Part shown: positions 22,642 through 26,814 of the stretch, piece after piece
How positions within the stretch are numbered: the stretch's first letter is position 1
How the letters are laid out: each line of letters begins with the position of its first letter
Assembly: GCF_004022265.1 (NCBI RefSeq)
Contig: NZ_SAVB01000002.1
Span: forward strand, 62,001 to 126,000
Reading direction: 5' to 3'
DNA: 64,000 nucleotides
Source of the DNA: Paenirhodobacter ferrireducens
Lineage (GTDB): Bacteria > Pseudomonadota > Alphaproteobacteria > Rhodobacterales > Rhodobacteraceae
The notes under the pieces: generated by a model
What the model was told of the DNA's origin: nothing
The model's input: the letters and a program-made list of their open reading frames with translations, nothing else
The model's database searches: none
Made by a program: the position numbers and the translations under genes

Positions 22642-22670
22642 TTGACATGCCTGCCGATAATCTGTCTAGA
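22642..22670 (+). promoter_or_regulatory. Candidate sigma-70-type promoter for the riboswitch/nrd transcript
   Basis: A perfect TTGACA (22642-22647), a 17-bp spacer and TCTAGA (22665-22670) place a start site around 22677, just before the first helix of the cobalamin riboswitch. The -10 match is only moderate. Confidence 0.55.
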
Positions 22671-22674
22671 TCCT

Positions 22675-22860
22675 GTTGTCTTGGTGCCCGCGACTCGTCG
22701 CGGGTGAAAAGGGAAGCCGGTGCGAAACCGGCGCTGCCCCCGCAACTGTGAGCGGTGAGCCGACCCCGTCGATCCACTGGCGCGCCGCGCCGGGAAGGAG
22801 GGGGAAGCGATCGAACCGCGAGCCAGGAGACCTGCCAGGACGCGAGAGACGAACCGGTCG
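22675..22860 (+). ncRNA. Cobalamin (B12) riboswitch upstream of nrdHIEF
   Basis: The conserved blocks appear in order: GGGAAGCCGGTGCGAAACCG, GCTGCCCCCGCAACTGTGAG, and the B12 box GAGCCAGGAGACCTGCC near 22820-22836. They are preceded by a P2-like helix (CCCGCGACTCGTCGCGGG). Adenosylcobalamin binding normally lowers expression of the downstream gene. It sits 93-278 bp before nrdH, on the same strand. The exact 5' and 3' limits are approximate. Confidence 0.95.
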
Positions 22861-22881
22861 GTGGGCCCGGAGGCGTTGTGC

Positions 22882-22901
22882 AATGCGGCGCGTCCGCATT
22901 T
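22882..22901 (+). promoter_or_regulatory. Expression-platform hairpin candidate
   Basis: An ATGCGG/CCGCAT stem with a 5-nt loop, followed by TTGT, lies 20-40 nt after the aptamer and 50 nt before nrdH. It could be the terminator or anti-terminator arm of the riboswitch. A translational switch cannot be ruled out. Confidence 0.4.
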
Positions 22902-22952
22902 GTCCGCGTCCCTGATCCCCGGCCAGCAGATGGCACAGAGAAGGGACCCGAG

Positions 22953-23174
22953 ATGAGCGTCACCGTCTATTCCAAACCGGCCTGCGTGCAATGCACCGCG
23001 ACCACCCGCGCGCTGGCGGCAAAGGGGATCGCCTTCGATCTCGTCGACCTGACCGAGGATGCCGAGGCGCTCGCCCGGGTGACCGAGCTGGGCTATCGGC
23101 AGGCGCCGGTGGTGATGACGGCCGACGATCACTGGGCGGGGTTCCGGCCCGACAAGATCGCGGCGCTGGTCTGA
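22953..23174 (+). CDS. nrdH: Glutaredoxin-like electron donor NrdH, 73 aa
   Basis: A small thioredoxin-fold protein that reduces class Ib ribonucleotide reductase. The redox motif is CVQC (residues ~11-14, in [13 protein letters not shown]), followed by the [13 protein letters not shown] cis-proline region and the NrdH C-terminal W-G-F-RPDKI segment. ATG 22953 follows AAGGGA. It is the first gene after the cobalamin riboswitch. Confidence 0.95.
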
Positions 23175-23190
23175 GGCCGGGACCGATCTG

Positions 23191-23607
23191 ATGGGCGGGC
23201 TTGTCTATTTCTCCTCGCGCTCGGGCAATACCGCGCGCTTCATCCGCGCGCTCGGCCTTCCCGCCGCGCGGATCCCGGTTGCGGTAGAGGCGCCGATGCC
23301 CGCCCCCCGTGCGCCCTTCGTTCTGGTAACGCCGACCTATGCCGACGGGGCAGGGCACGGCGCCGTCCCTAAGCAGGTGATCCGGTTTCTGAACGACCCG
23401 GACACCCGCGCGCAGCTGCGCGGCGTGATCGCCGGCGGCAACCGCAATTTCGGCGCGCTCTTCGCGCTTGCCGGCGATGTCGTGGCGCAAAAATGCGCGG
23501 TGCCGGTGCTCTATCGTTTCGAGCTGGCCGGCACCCCCAGCGATATCGCCCGTGTCACAGAAGGACTGGACAAGTTTTGGAAGACGCAATTCTCGACCGC
23601 GATCTGA
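23191..23607 (+). CDS. nrdI: Flavodoxin-like NrdI, 138 aa
   Basis: The flavoprotein that supplies the oxidant for assembling the dimanganese-tyrosyl radical cofactor of NrdF. It shows [14 protein letters not shown] (FMN phosphate loop), TPTYADG and [15 protein letters not shown], all diagnostic of NrdI. The gene starts 16 bp after nrdH, and its 3' end overlaps the likely nrdE start by 31 bp. Confidence 0.95.
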
Positions 23608-25757
23608 GCGACGCCGCCCCGGCACAGGCCGTGCCCGCCGAATGGCAGGGGCTCGACTATCACGCGCTGAACGCGATGCTGAACCTTTACGACGACGCGG
23701 GCCGGATCCGGTTCGAGGCCGACCGCATGGCCGCGCGGCAGTATTTCCTCAGCCATGTGAACCAGAACACCGTGTTCTTCCACTCGCTCGAGGAAAAGCT
23801 GCGCTATCTGGTCGAGGAGGGCTATTACGAGGCCGATGTCCTCGAGCAATACGATCCCGCCTTCATCCCGCGGATCTGGGACGCGGCCTATCGGGTCAAG
23901 TTCCGCTTCCCGACCTTCCTCGGCGCGTTCAAGTATTACACGAGCTATACGCTGAAGACCCGCGACGGGAAACGCTACCTCGAACGGTTCGAGGACCGGG
24001 TGGTGATGGTCGCGCTGACGCTCGCCCGCGGCGACGAGGCGCTGGCGCTGCGGCTGATGCAGGAGATTCTGGCGGGCCGGTTCCAGCCGGCGACGCCCAC
24101 CTTCCTCAATGCCGGCAAGGCGCAGCGCGGCGAGTTGATCTCGTGCTTCCTGCTGCGCATCGAGGACAACATGGAAAGCATCGGCCGCGCGATCAATTCG
24201 GCGCTGCAGCTGTCGAAGCGCGGCGGCGGCGTGGCGCTGATGCTGACCAACATCCGCGAGCATGGTGCGGCCATCAAGGGGATCGAGAACCAGTCCTCGG
24301 GGGTGATCCCGGTGATGAAGCTGCTTGAGGACAGTTTCAGCTATGCCAACCAGCTCGGCGCGCGGCAGGGCGCGGGGGCGGTCTATCTGAACGCCCATCA
24401 CCCCGACATCCTGCGCTTTCTCGACACCAAGCGCGAGAATGCCGACGAAAAGATCCGGATCAAGACACTGTCCCTCGGCGTCGTCATCCCGGACATTACC
24501 TTCGAACTCGCCAAGCGCAACGAGGAGATGTATCTCTTCTCGCCGCATGACGTGGAGAAGGTCTATGGCACGCCCTTCTCGGAGATCTCGGTGACCGAGC
24601 GCTACCGCGAGATGGTCGACAACCCGAAGATCCGCAAGCGCAAGATCAACGCGCGCGCCTTCTTCCAGACGCTCGCTGAGATCCAGTTCGAAAGCGGCTA
24701 TCCGTACCTGATGTTCGAGGACACGGTGAACCGCGCGAACCCGGTCGCGGGGCGGATCACCATGTCGAACCTGTGTTCCGAGATCTTGCAGGTGAACGAG
24801 GCGTCGGCGTTCAACGACGACCTGAGCTATCGCCACCTCGGCACCGACATCTCGTGCAACCTCGGCTCGCTCAACATCGCCAAGGCGATGGATGGTGGCG
24901 ATCTGGGCGCCACGGTCGAGACCGCGGTGCGGGCACTGAACGCGGTCTCCGAGATGTCGGCGATCAACTCGGTGCCCTCGATCCGGCGCGGCAATGACGA
25001 AAGCCATGCGATCGGGTTGGGCCAGATGAACCTGCACGGCTTCCTCGCGCGCGAGCGGATCCATTACGGCAGCCCCGAGGGCATCGACTTCACCAATATC
25101 TATTTCGCCACGGTGCTGTATCACTGCCTGCGCGCCTCGAATGCGCTGGCGCGCGAGCGCGGGCACAGCTTCGCGGGCTTCGAGGCCTCGACATACGCCG
25201 ACGGCAGTTTCTTTGGGAAATACGTGACCCGCGACTGGTTGCCCGCGACTGAAACGGTGGCCGATCTTTTCGCGCGCTTCGGGATCGCGGTGCCCACCCG
25301 CGCGGACTGGGCCGCGCTGCGGGACGCGGTGATGGACGGTGGGCTTTACAACCGCAACCTGCAGGCGGTGCCGCCCACCGGCTCGATCAGCTACATCAAC
25401 AATGCCACCTCCTCGATCCACCCGATCACGGCGAAGATCGAGATCCGGAAAGAGGGCAAGATCGGCCGGGTCTATTACCCCGCCGCCTATATGACGAATG
25501 AGAACCTCGAATATTATCGCGACGCCTATGAGATCGGGCCCGAGGCGATCATCGACACCTATGCGGCGGCGACCCAGCATGTCGATCAGGGGCTGTCGCT
25601 GACGCTGTTCTTCAAGGACACGGCCTCGACGCGCGACATCAACCGCGCGCAGATCCATGCCTGGAAGGCGGGGATCAAGACGATCTACTACATCCGCCTG
25701 CGGCAGATGGCCCTCGAGGGGACCGAGGTGCAGGGCTGTGTGTCCTGCGCGCTGTGA
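23577..25757 (+). CDS. nrdE: Class Ib ribonucleotide reductase large subunit NrdE, 726 aa
   Basis: Reduces ribonucleoside diphosphates to deoxy forms. Visible are the substrate-site Cys in SNLCSEILQ, the NLGSLNIAK loop, [18 protein letters not shown] and the C-terminal redox tail [12 protein letters not shown]. The lack of an N-terminal ATP-cone points to Ib rather than Ia. No ATG fits. TTG 23577 ([10 protein letters not shown]) is my choice because it gives the normal length and follows AAGGA by about 11 nt, within the end of nrdI. Confidence 0.95.
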
Positions 25758-25782
25758 CGGGCGGTCGTGACCGGAGCCGGCC

Positions 25783-25828
25783 GGGGGCGCTGCCCCCGGA
25801 CCCCCGGAGTATTTGCGCCAAGAAAAAG
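25783..25828. repeat. Dispersed intergenic repeat copy between nrdE and nrdF
   Basis: A GC hairpin (GGGGGCGCTGCCCCC) is followed by CCCCCGGAGTATTTGCGCCA and AGAAAAAGG. It is the same element as at 13892-13975 and 59303-59351. It forms almost the whole 82-bp nrdE-nrdF gap and ends 11 bp before the nrdF ATG. Confidence 0.8.
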
Positions 25829-25839
25829 GGGCCGAGACG

Positions 25840-26814
25840 ATGAAGGATTTTGCGGGGCGGCCGGTGCCGCGCGCGATCAACTGGAACCGCGTTCAGGACG
25901 ACAAGGATCTGGAGATCTGGAACCGGCTGACGGTGAATTTCTGGCTGCCCGAGAAGGTGCCGCTGTCGAATGACATCCAGAGCTGGTCGCAGCTGACCGG
26001 GGACGAGCAGCGGCTGACGATCCGGGTGTTCACCGGGCTGACGCTTCTGGACACGATCCAGAACACGGTGGGTGCGCCCGCGCTGATGCCCGATGCGGTC
26101 ACGCCGCATGAAGAGGCGGTGTTGACCAACATCGCCTTCATGGAGGCGGTGCACGCGCGGTCCTATTCCTCGATCTTCTCGACGCTGTGCTCGACCCCGG
26201 AGGTCGACGAAGCCTTCCGCTGGTCCGAGGAGAACCCGCATCTGCAGCAGAAGGCGCGGCTGATCCTCGACGAATACGATGCCGCCTCGCAGCCGCTGAA
26301 GAAGAAGGTGGCGAGCGTCTTTCTGGAAAGTTTCCTCTTCTACTCGGGCTTCTACCTGCCGATGCATTGGTCGAGCCGGGCGCGGCTGACCAATACCGCC
26401 GATCTGATCCGCCTCATCATTCGCGACGAGGCGGTGCATGGCTATTACATCGGCTACAAGTTCCAGCGCGGGCTGGAGCGGCTGAGCGAGGCCGAGCGGC
26501 AGGAGATCAAGGATTTCGCCTTCGCGCTGATCTTCGATCTTTATGCGATCGAGTGCCGTTATACCGAGACGCTCTATGACCCGCTCGGGCTGACCGAAGA
26601 CGTGAAGGCCTTCCTGCATTACAACGCGAACAAGGCGCTGCAGAATCTCGGCTTCGAGAACCTCTTCCCCGACGAGCTGTGCCGGGTGAACCCGGCGATC
26701 CTGGCGGCGCTGAGCCCGAACGCCGACGAGAACCACGATTTCTTCTCGGGCTCGGGCTCGTCCTATGTGATCGGCAAGGCGGTCGCGACCGAGGACGAGG
26801 ACTGGGATTTCTGA
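25840..26814 (+). CDS. nrdF: Class Ib ribonucleotide reductase small subunit NrdF, 324 aa
   Basis: The radical-generating subunit. Metal-ligand helices are visible around [12 protein letters not shown] (E and H), [14 protein letters not shown] (E) and [13 protein letters not shown] (E and H). The start motif [19 protein letters not shown] and the C-terminal acidic tail ending EDEDWDF are as in NrdF. ATG 25840 was chosen over a TTG lying inside the repeat. Confidence 0.96.

What the first reader, a model, noticed from the sequence alone, without database searches (positions are those of the whole stretch)
22642..26814. Cobalamin riboswitch controlling the B12-independent class Ib ribonucleotide reductase nrdHIEF
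Seen directly: a full B12-box riboswitch, a promoter candidate in front and nrdHIEF behind on the same strand. Known: class II (B12-dependent) reductases exist, and in Streptomyces a B12 riboswitch shuts off the alternative class Ia reductase. Inference: this bacterium uses a class II enzyme when B12 is present and the manganese/NrdI-dependent Ib enzyme when it is not, tying DNA precursor supply to B12 status.
Basis: partly seen in the sequence, partly recalled or inferred. Interest (0 to 1): 0.7.

Follow-up and report, generated by a model that had tools for sequence, protein, structure and literature searches.

The report
Vitamin B12 switch before backup reductase
A bacterium that can make DNA building blocks with vitamin B12-dependent enzymes also carries a backup enzyme that needs no B12, and an RNA switch in front of the backup genes most likely turns them off when B12 is plentiful.

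Summary
A full-length cobalamin riboswitch (RF00174, 147.6 bits, 22665-22853 +) leads nrdH-nrdI-nrdE-nrdF, all class Ib by curated models. Its four other cobalamin riboswitches lie before B12 uptake or synthesis genes. The arrangement recurs in 47 of 60 nrdI-carrying genomes among 390 sampled of the order and in 22 of 23 named alphaproteobacterial loci (three shared with that sample). Four order-sample genomes without class II lack the switch; one same-genus genome (G004) contradicts this. New here: a promoter abutting the aptamer with two NrdR-like boxes, and a hairpin masking the nrdH Shine-Dalgarno, with some covariation and no terminator-like site, so probably translational OFF control. 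Binding and expression are untested. The principle is in print for class Ia (Streptomyces) and class III (Desulfovibrio); I saw no printed class Ib case, but two key papers could not be read.

The parts
22632..22647 (+). first NrdR-like box, overlapping the -35 element (TTGACA 22642-22647)
   Evidence: C-A-AT core before TTGAC shared by most of 56 rows; box outline recalled, 16-bp length from passages of PMC4409342
22663..22678 (+). second NrdR-like box, overlapping the -10 element (CTAGAT 22666-22671; CTATAT or CAATAT in many relatives)
   Evidence: 51 of 56 rows match CTATAT or CAATAT in 5 or 6 of 6 positions; 31 bp between boxes in 49 of 56 (tied to the 18-base spacer, not a separate count); degenerate in the window
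22665..22853 (+). cobalamin riboswitch aptamer (RF00174)
   Evidence: 147.6 bits; alignment with 26 relatives
22854..22870 (+). hairpin with G-rich loop just after the aptamer, presumed L13, kissing partner of aptamer loop L5
   Evidence: stem covaries in 54 leaders; L5-L13 kissing loop of cobalamin riboswitches described in PMC9600662 (passages); the loop pattern CGGNGGG is absent from the four other cobalamin leaders of the genome
22908..22947 (+). sequestering hairpin: GUCCCU 22908-22913 pairs with AGGGAC 22942-22947, the presumed nrdH Shine-Dalgarno
   Evidence: -20.6 kcal/mol for 22905-22955, z -3.76; 3 of 2000 permutations reach the observed pairing; (unrestricted) gives no clear excess
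22953..23174 (+). nrdH, redoxin of class Ib reductase
   Evidence: TIGR02194
23191..23607 (+). nrdI, flavoprotein of class Ib cofactor assembly
   Evidence: TIGR00333
23577..25757 (+). nrdE, class Ib large subunit (start uncertain: TTG 23577 or GTG 23631)
   Evidence: TIGR04170
25840..26814 (+). nrdF, class Ib radical-bearing subunit
   Evidence: TIGR04171

Best explanation
nrdHIEF is a B12-independent backup ribonucleotide reductase under a cobalamin OFF switch. Transcription starts just at the aptamer, from a promoter that carries tandem NrdR-like boxes. When adenosylcobalamin is ample, the aptamer folds, the G-rich hairpin behind it docks on the aptamer, and the GUCCC segment pairs with the nrdH Shine-Dalgarno, so the operon is not translated and the two class II (B12-dependent) reductases make deoxynucleotides. 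When B12 or cobalt runs short, the Shine-Dalgarno is freed and the class Ib enzyme takes over. Shown: aptamer, operon, two class II genes, conserved promoter, a stable masking hairpin with some covariation, co-occurrence with class II. Inferred: ligand, direction, docking, NrdR binding, physiology.
For: Aptamer 147.6 bits. Class Ib operon by curated cut-offs. Two class II genes, no class Ia large subunit. The four other cobalamin switches of the genome lie before btuB-like/btuF-like/btuC-like genes, bluB, a CbiM-like gene plus cobF, and cobW-cobN with a small unnamed frame first, which makes OFF the expected direction. Recurrence in 47 of 60 nrdI genomes of the order sample and 22 of 23 named alphaproteobacterial loci. 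In the order sample 47 of 56 genomes with class II have the switch against 0 of 4 without, Fisher p = 0.0015, not corrected for kinship. Masking hairpin z -3.76; own pairing reached by 3 of 2000 permutations, while three control regions give 837, 1931 and 172. No terminator-like site on the + strand of 22480-23000. nrdR is in the genome. Precedents: nrdABS class Ia of Streptomyces (PMC4991794, passages) and, as a proposal, nrdDG of Desulfovibrio (PMC545781, passages).
Against: G004, same genus, keeps the switch (136.8 bits) but shows NrdE as its only class I/II reductase in three searches; its assembly has 240 contigs, so absence is not certain. Nine genomes of the order sample, plus G003 and L026, have class II and class Ib without a switch. 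A pair test on the tree has 4 usable pairs: about 2 agree, none disagree, not significant. The anti-SD region was chosen after looking at the alignment, so the permutation figure is optimistic; the unrestricted search gave own 15.73 against a highest permutation mean of 15.93, and pairing is weak in some rows such as L127 and L132. The RNAalifold consensus instead pairs the GUCCC segment with the stretch after the G-rich hairpin; that pairing shows no covariation. No binding or expression data.
Confidence: 0.75

Rival explanations
1. Same B12 OFF logic, but the switch acts on transcription (attenuation or Rho) rather than on nrdH translation.
For: The nrdABS switch of Streptomyces is reported to regulate transcription (PMC4991794, passages); the alternative helix could serve another kind of control.
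Against: No terminator-like site on the + strand of the leader. A stable hairpin masks the Shine-Dalgarno, with some covariation across relatives.
Confidence: 0.13
2. The switch is a relic: promoter and NrdR set expression, and the riboswitch has little effect on nrdHIEF today.
For: Several nrdHIEF leaders have lost the aptamer while keeping promoter parts or the G-rich hairpin (L128, L130, L133, L098, read by eye), so the switch is dispensable in some lineages.
Against: In the window the aptamer scores 147.6 bits with its conserved core intact, and it is kept in 47 of 60 genomes of the order sample.
Confidence: 0.08
3. The aptamer activates nrdHIEF in the presence of B12 (ON switch).
For: The consensus fold of the leader holds the GUCCC segment away from the Shine-Dalgarno; if that is the bound state, translation would be on.
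Against: The other switched genes of this genome serve B12 uptake and synthesis, which calls for OFF control; the published precedents are proposed or reported as repression when B12 is present.
Confidence: 0.04

Closest known systems
Streptomyces coelicolor nrdABS (class Ia) under a B12 riboswitch, with class II NrdJ as main enzyme
   Same: B12-independent reductase behind a cobalamin riboswitch in a genome with class II (PMC4991794, passages); nrd genes there are also under NrdR (PMC4409342, passages)
   Different: Class Ia, reported as control of transcription; here class Ib with NrdI and NrdH, and a leader that points to translation
nrdDG (class III) behind B12 elements in Desulfovibrio vulgaris and Desulfuromonas
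   Same: Same swap logic, proposed in PMC545781 (passages)
   Different: Class III enzyme in deltaproteobacteria; here a class Ib enzyme in alphaproteobacteria
metE behind a B12 riboswitch (Mycobacterium tuberculosis)
   Same: B12-independent isozyme repressed by B12 through a riboswitch (PMC4428469, passages); a Mesorhizobium loti metE switch is listed as a candidate in PMC5948670 (passages)
   Different: Different pathway (methionine)

Membership tests
Cobalamin riboswitch (RF00174) | sequence and structure of the B12 aptamer above the curated score | tested here: met
   147.6 bits against 31.5, full length
Cobalamin riboswitch (RF00174) | located in the 5' leader of a B12-related or B12-isozyme operon, same strand | tested here: met
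   99 bases between aptamer end (22853) and nrdH ATG (22953)
Cobalamin riboswitch (RF00174) | binds adenosylcobalamin and changes expression | not testable with these tools
   needs in-line probing or reporter assays
Class Ib ribonucleotide reductase operon | NrdE and NrdF of the Ib subclass with NrdI (and NrdH) | tested here: met
   TIGR04170, TIGR04171, TIGR00333, TIGR02194 all over their cut-offs
B12-switched isozyme pair (B12-dependent and B12-independent reductase in one genome) | class II reductase present in the same genome | tested here: met
   two class II genes on contigs C49 and C7
B12-switched isozyme pair (B12-dependent and B12-independent reductase in one genome) | switch absent where no class II enzyme exists | tested here: inconclusive
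   0 of 4 such genomes in the order sample have it, and G016 and G111 lack it, but G004 has it; kinship-aware test too small
NrdR regulon | nrdR gene in the genome | tested here: met
   TIGR00244, 163.8 bits against 124.65
NrdR regulon | two NrdR boxes about 31-32 bp apart at the promoter | tested here: inconclusive
   31 bp in 49 of 56 rows, a figure tied to the promoter spacer; boxes in the window are degenerate; binding untested

The most novel reading that the evidence does not exclude
The riboswitch acts as an evolutionary lock: as long as it works, class II cannot be lost, because B12 would then silence the only aerobic reductase. Lineages must first lose the switch in place (class II present, switch gone: 9 genomes of the order sample plus G003 and L026), and only then can they drop class II (both absent: G221, G380, G399, G511, G016, G111). 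G004, with switch and no class II found, would have to be an assembly gap or a cell that never meets enough B12. Together with NrdR at the same promoter, one leader would gate DNA precursor supply by dNTP level and B12 level at once.
Probability: 0.35. Interest if true: 0.55.

Novelty: new member of a known kind. Interest (0 to 1): 0.42.

Why it matters
It extends the known B12 swap between reductases to the class Ib enzyme, in what look like Rhodobacterales and Rhizobiaceae (names from the record titles; the window's own order is not named by the tools). If true, B12 or cobalt supply decides which metal (cobalt, or manganese/iron) these bacteria spend on DNA synthesis. The leader offers a compact, testable translational switch beside an NrdR-type promoter.

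Tried and rejected
A terminator-based mechanism was looked for and no + strand site was found. Pairing of the GUCCC segment with the stretch behind the G-rich hairpin, or with the bases after the aptamer, was tested as an antisequester and showed no covariation (774 and 1926 of 2000 permutations reach the observed value). An unrestricted search for anti-SD pairing over the leader gave no clear excess over 200 permutations. A kinship-corrected test of switch against class II is too small to decide (quick tree, 34 of 89 inner branches open). A class-wide sample of 385 genomes gave 6 with an NrdI match, 5 over the cut-off; its four new loci (L173-L176) have no cobalamin switch, their class II content was not searched, L174 and L175 match NrdI weakly and show no NrdH, and none of the four is in the tree. 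Three duplicate loci (L115, L120, L154 = L025, L018, L023) were dropped from the tree but are among the rows. Rhizobiaceae-type rows with leaders over 150 bases were left out of the leader tests, and 57 leaders were reduced to 54 distinct ones. The leader script found switch plus nrdH in 66 rows, the window included; it missed L022, L024, L032, L112, L155 and the weak L107, which have switches by Rfam. The loose box-spacing count was replaced. Class III reductases were not searched for in any genome. Literature: the listings of eight searches and passages of eleven papers show no statement of a cobalamin switch before nrdHIEF; I did not open the other listed papers. Rodionov 2003 and Vitreschak 2003 are not held and may list it. 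PMC3766115 covers Rhodobacterales and Rhizobiales and has a class for isozymes of B12-dependent enzymes, but its main text has no nrd and its supplements could not be opened.
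Full report
Observation. The finding describes a B12-box riboswitch with a promoter in front and nrdHIEF behind. All parts are there. Rfam gives a full-length Cobalamin aptamer at 22665-22853 on the + strand with 147.6 bits, E = 2e-37. The next gene is nrdH (ATG 22953), then nrdI, nrdE and nrdF; each matches a curated NCBIfam model over the cut-off, and NrdE and NrdF match the class Ib models. A Shine-Dalgarno-like AGGGAC lies at 22942-22947.

The genome. PF02867 finds three reductase large subunits in the window's genome: NrdE in the window, a 769-aa protein on contig C49, and one of 1233 aa on C7. 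The second and third are class II by TIGR02504 (599.5 and 549.7 bits against 399.95); the long one also matches PRK07562 (2232 bits against 1737) and carries PF08471. No class Ia large subunit was found; class III was not searched for. The genome holds five cobalamin riboswitches. The other four lie before a BtuB-like receptor with BtuF-like and BtuC-like genes (all below their NCBIfam cut-offs, so named by resemblance), before bluB, before a CbiM-like gene with cobF, and before cobW-cobN, the last with a small unnamed frame first. So the organism probably makes and takes up B12, and the reductase operon is the one switch target that is a B12-independent isozyme.

Recurrence. Of 390 genomes drawn from the order, 60 carry nrdI. 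A script found the B12 core before nrdH in 46. Rfam confirmed all 46 (20 of 20, 20 of 20, three, three) and added one weak case, L107, with 57.3 bits: 47 of 60. Rfam found none in the other 13. The exception is L026 (Paracoccus lichenicola). Three of the 23 (L018, L023, L025) show the same match coordinates as order-sample genomes, so the two sets overlap. I counted L018 as alphaproteobacterial although its title says Nocardioides, because its genome agrees in this way with G279, told as the same family as the window. In the other 57 named loci the script saw only minus-strand chance patterns; nine of them were also scanned by Rfam without a cobalamin match (L034, L045, L051, L053; L035, L039, L052, L055, L067).

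Switch and class II. All 23 named alphaproteobacterial genomes have class II over the cut-off. In the order sample, 53 of the 57 genomes searched have class II; G221, G380, G399 and G511 do not. The remaining three of the 60 (G000, G011, G043) have it. PF02867 finds NrdE as the only class I/II large subunit in those four. All four lack the switch. Table: switch with class II 47, no switch with class II 9, switch without class II 0, neither 4; Fisher p = 0.0015. Adding five more genomes from the relatives search (G003 class II only, G004 switch only, G008 and G019 both, G016 neither; G111, of another order, left out) gives p = 0.0019. These tests ignore kinship. On a tree of 86 alphaproteobacterial NrdH+NrdI rows (68 both, 1 switch only, 11 class II only, 6 neither) the switch needs 9 changes on the best tree, which is weakly resolved. 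Independent pairs number 4, of which about 2 agree and none disagree, so the test cannot reach significance. G004 is a counterexample as far as the data go: three searches find no class II, although five cobalamin switches are present; it is in 240 contigs.

Loss in place. Leaders without the switch often keep its surroundings: L128 keeps the promoter, L130 and L133 its -10 end, and L098 keeps a hairpin CCGTG-CGGCGGG-CGCGG of the kind that follows the aptamer in switched relatives (read by eye, not counted). So the switch was probably lost in situ in these rather than never gained.

Promoter. Of 57 switched rows with short leaders (the window included; three are duplicates), 56 have TTGAC upstream; 49 of the 56 have an 18-base spacer to the best CTATAT/CAATAT-like hexamer, and 51 match that hexamer in at least 5 of 6 positions. 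In the window these are TTGACA 22642-22647 and CTAGAT 22666-22671, so transcription should start at the aptamer's edge. Both hexamers lie in repeats with a C-A-AT core. Their spacing is 31 bp in 49 of 56, a figure that follows from the 18-base spacer and is not separate evidence. This resembles the tandem NrdR boxes of other nrd promoters: PMC4428469 mentions 32-bp spacing upstream of nrdH in mycobacteria, and PMC4409342 a 16-bp box and one box overlapping the -10 in Pseudomonas (passages). nrdR is present in the genome. NrdR binding is inference.

Leader. In 54 distinct leaders a hairpin follows the aptamer, with loop CGGNGGG in nearly all; its stem covaries strongly (z 10.6, 0 of 2000 permutations). 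It fits the P13-L13 hairpin whose loop kisses L5 of the aptamer in cobalamin riboswitches (PMC9600662, passages). In the genome's other four cobalamin leaders the exact loop pattern is absent; a G-rich stretch stands there, and the computed fold shows it as a hairpin loop in two (btuB-like, CbiM-like) but not in bluB and cobW (read by eye). Further on, GUCCCU 22908-22913 pairs with AGGGAC 22942-22947. The 51-base stretch folds at -20.6 kcal/mol, z -3.76, and none of 200 shuffles is as stable. Across relatives the partner often changes with the Shine-Dalgarno (GUCCCC/GGGGAC in L016, GUCUCC/GGAGAC in L103, CUGUCCUC/GAGGACAG in L110, CGUGCC/GGCACG in L122); own pairing is reached by 3 of 2000 permutations, and three control regions give 837, 1931 and 172. 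Against this: the region was chosen after seeing the alignment, some rows pair weakly (L127, L132), the unrestricted search gave no clear excess, and the consensus fold prefers another partner for the GUCCC segment, which shows no covariation. No terminator-like site is on the + strand. I read this as translational control with competing partners for GUCCC.

Mechanism and verdict. The best reading is a B12 OFF switch on a B12-independent backup reductase: class II enzymes serve when B12 is ample, class Ib when B12 or cobalt is short. Ligand binding and direction are inferred from the aptamer family, from the other switched genes in the genome, and from the precedents: nrdABS of Streptomyces (PMC4991794, passages) and nrdDG of Desulfovibrio and Desulfuromonas, a proposal (PMC545781, passages). 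The principle is therefore known. I saw no statement of the class Ib case in the listings of eight searches or in passages of eleven papers, but Rodionov 2003 and Vitreschak 2003 could not be read, nor the supplements of PMC3766115. I therefore file it as a new member of a known kind.

Noticed in passing
window 25789-25814 (+): Between nrdE and nrdF sits a repeat (GCTGCCCCCGGACCCCCGGAGTATTT) with 14 copies in the genome within 3 mismatches (8 forward, 6 reverse; none for the reversed-pattern control). It lies in the 82-base gap of the operon and may be a REP-like element.
   Followed up: partly
window 26857-32383: Behind nrdF lie a divergent RamB-like regulator and a PrpD-like gene (both below their cut-offs), then PrpC and PrpB genes (over theirs) of the methylcitrate cycle, another B12-independent route. 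Neither the regulator nor PrpD gave a match in the 23 named loci, which hold only about 2.4 kb beyond nrdF.
   Followed up: partly
window 39924-40028 (-): TPP riboswitch, 67.4 bits.
   Followed up: no
L103 (genome G004): Switch retained where NrdE is the only class I/II reductase found: B12 would then silence it, unless class II is missing from the assembly.
   Followed up: partly
L017, L096, L110, L125, L136, L139, L141, L143, L160: A second cobalamin riboswitch lies near the nrdH one on the opposite strand; in L096 and L110 it seems to lead a periplasmic binding protein gene (read by eye).
   Followed up: partly
L018: Record titled Nocardioides marinus, but its genome's match coordinates equal those of G279, told as same family as the window: probably a mislabelled record.
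   Followed up: no
L027, L029-L031, L033, L036-L038, L043 (Rhizobiaceae-type): From the end of the aptamer core to nrdH there are 265-419 bases, against about 101-136 in the other switched rows, and the aptamer carries a longer insertion: a different expression platform may be used there.
   Followed up: no
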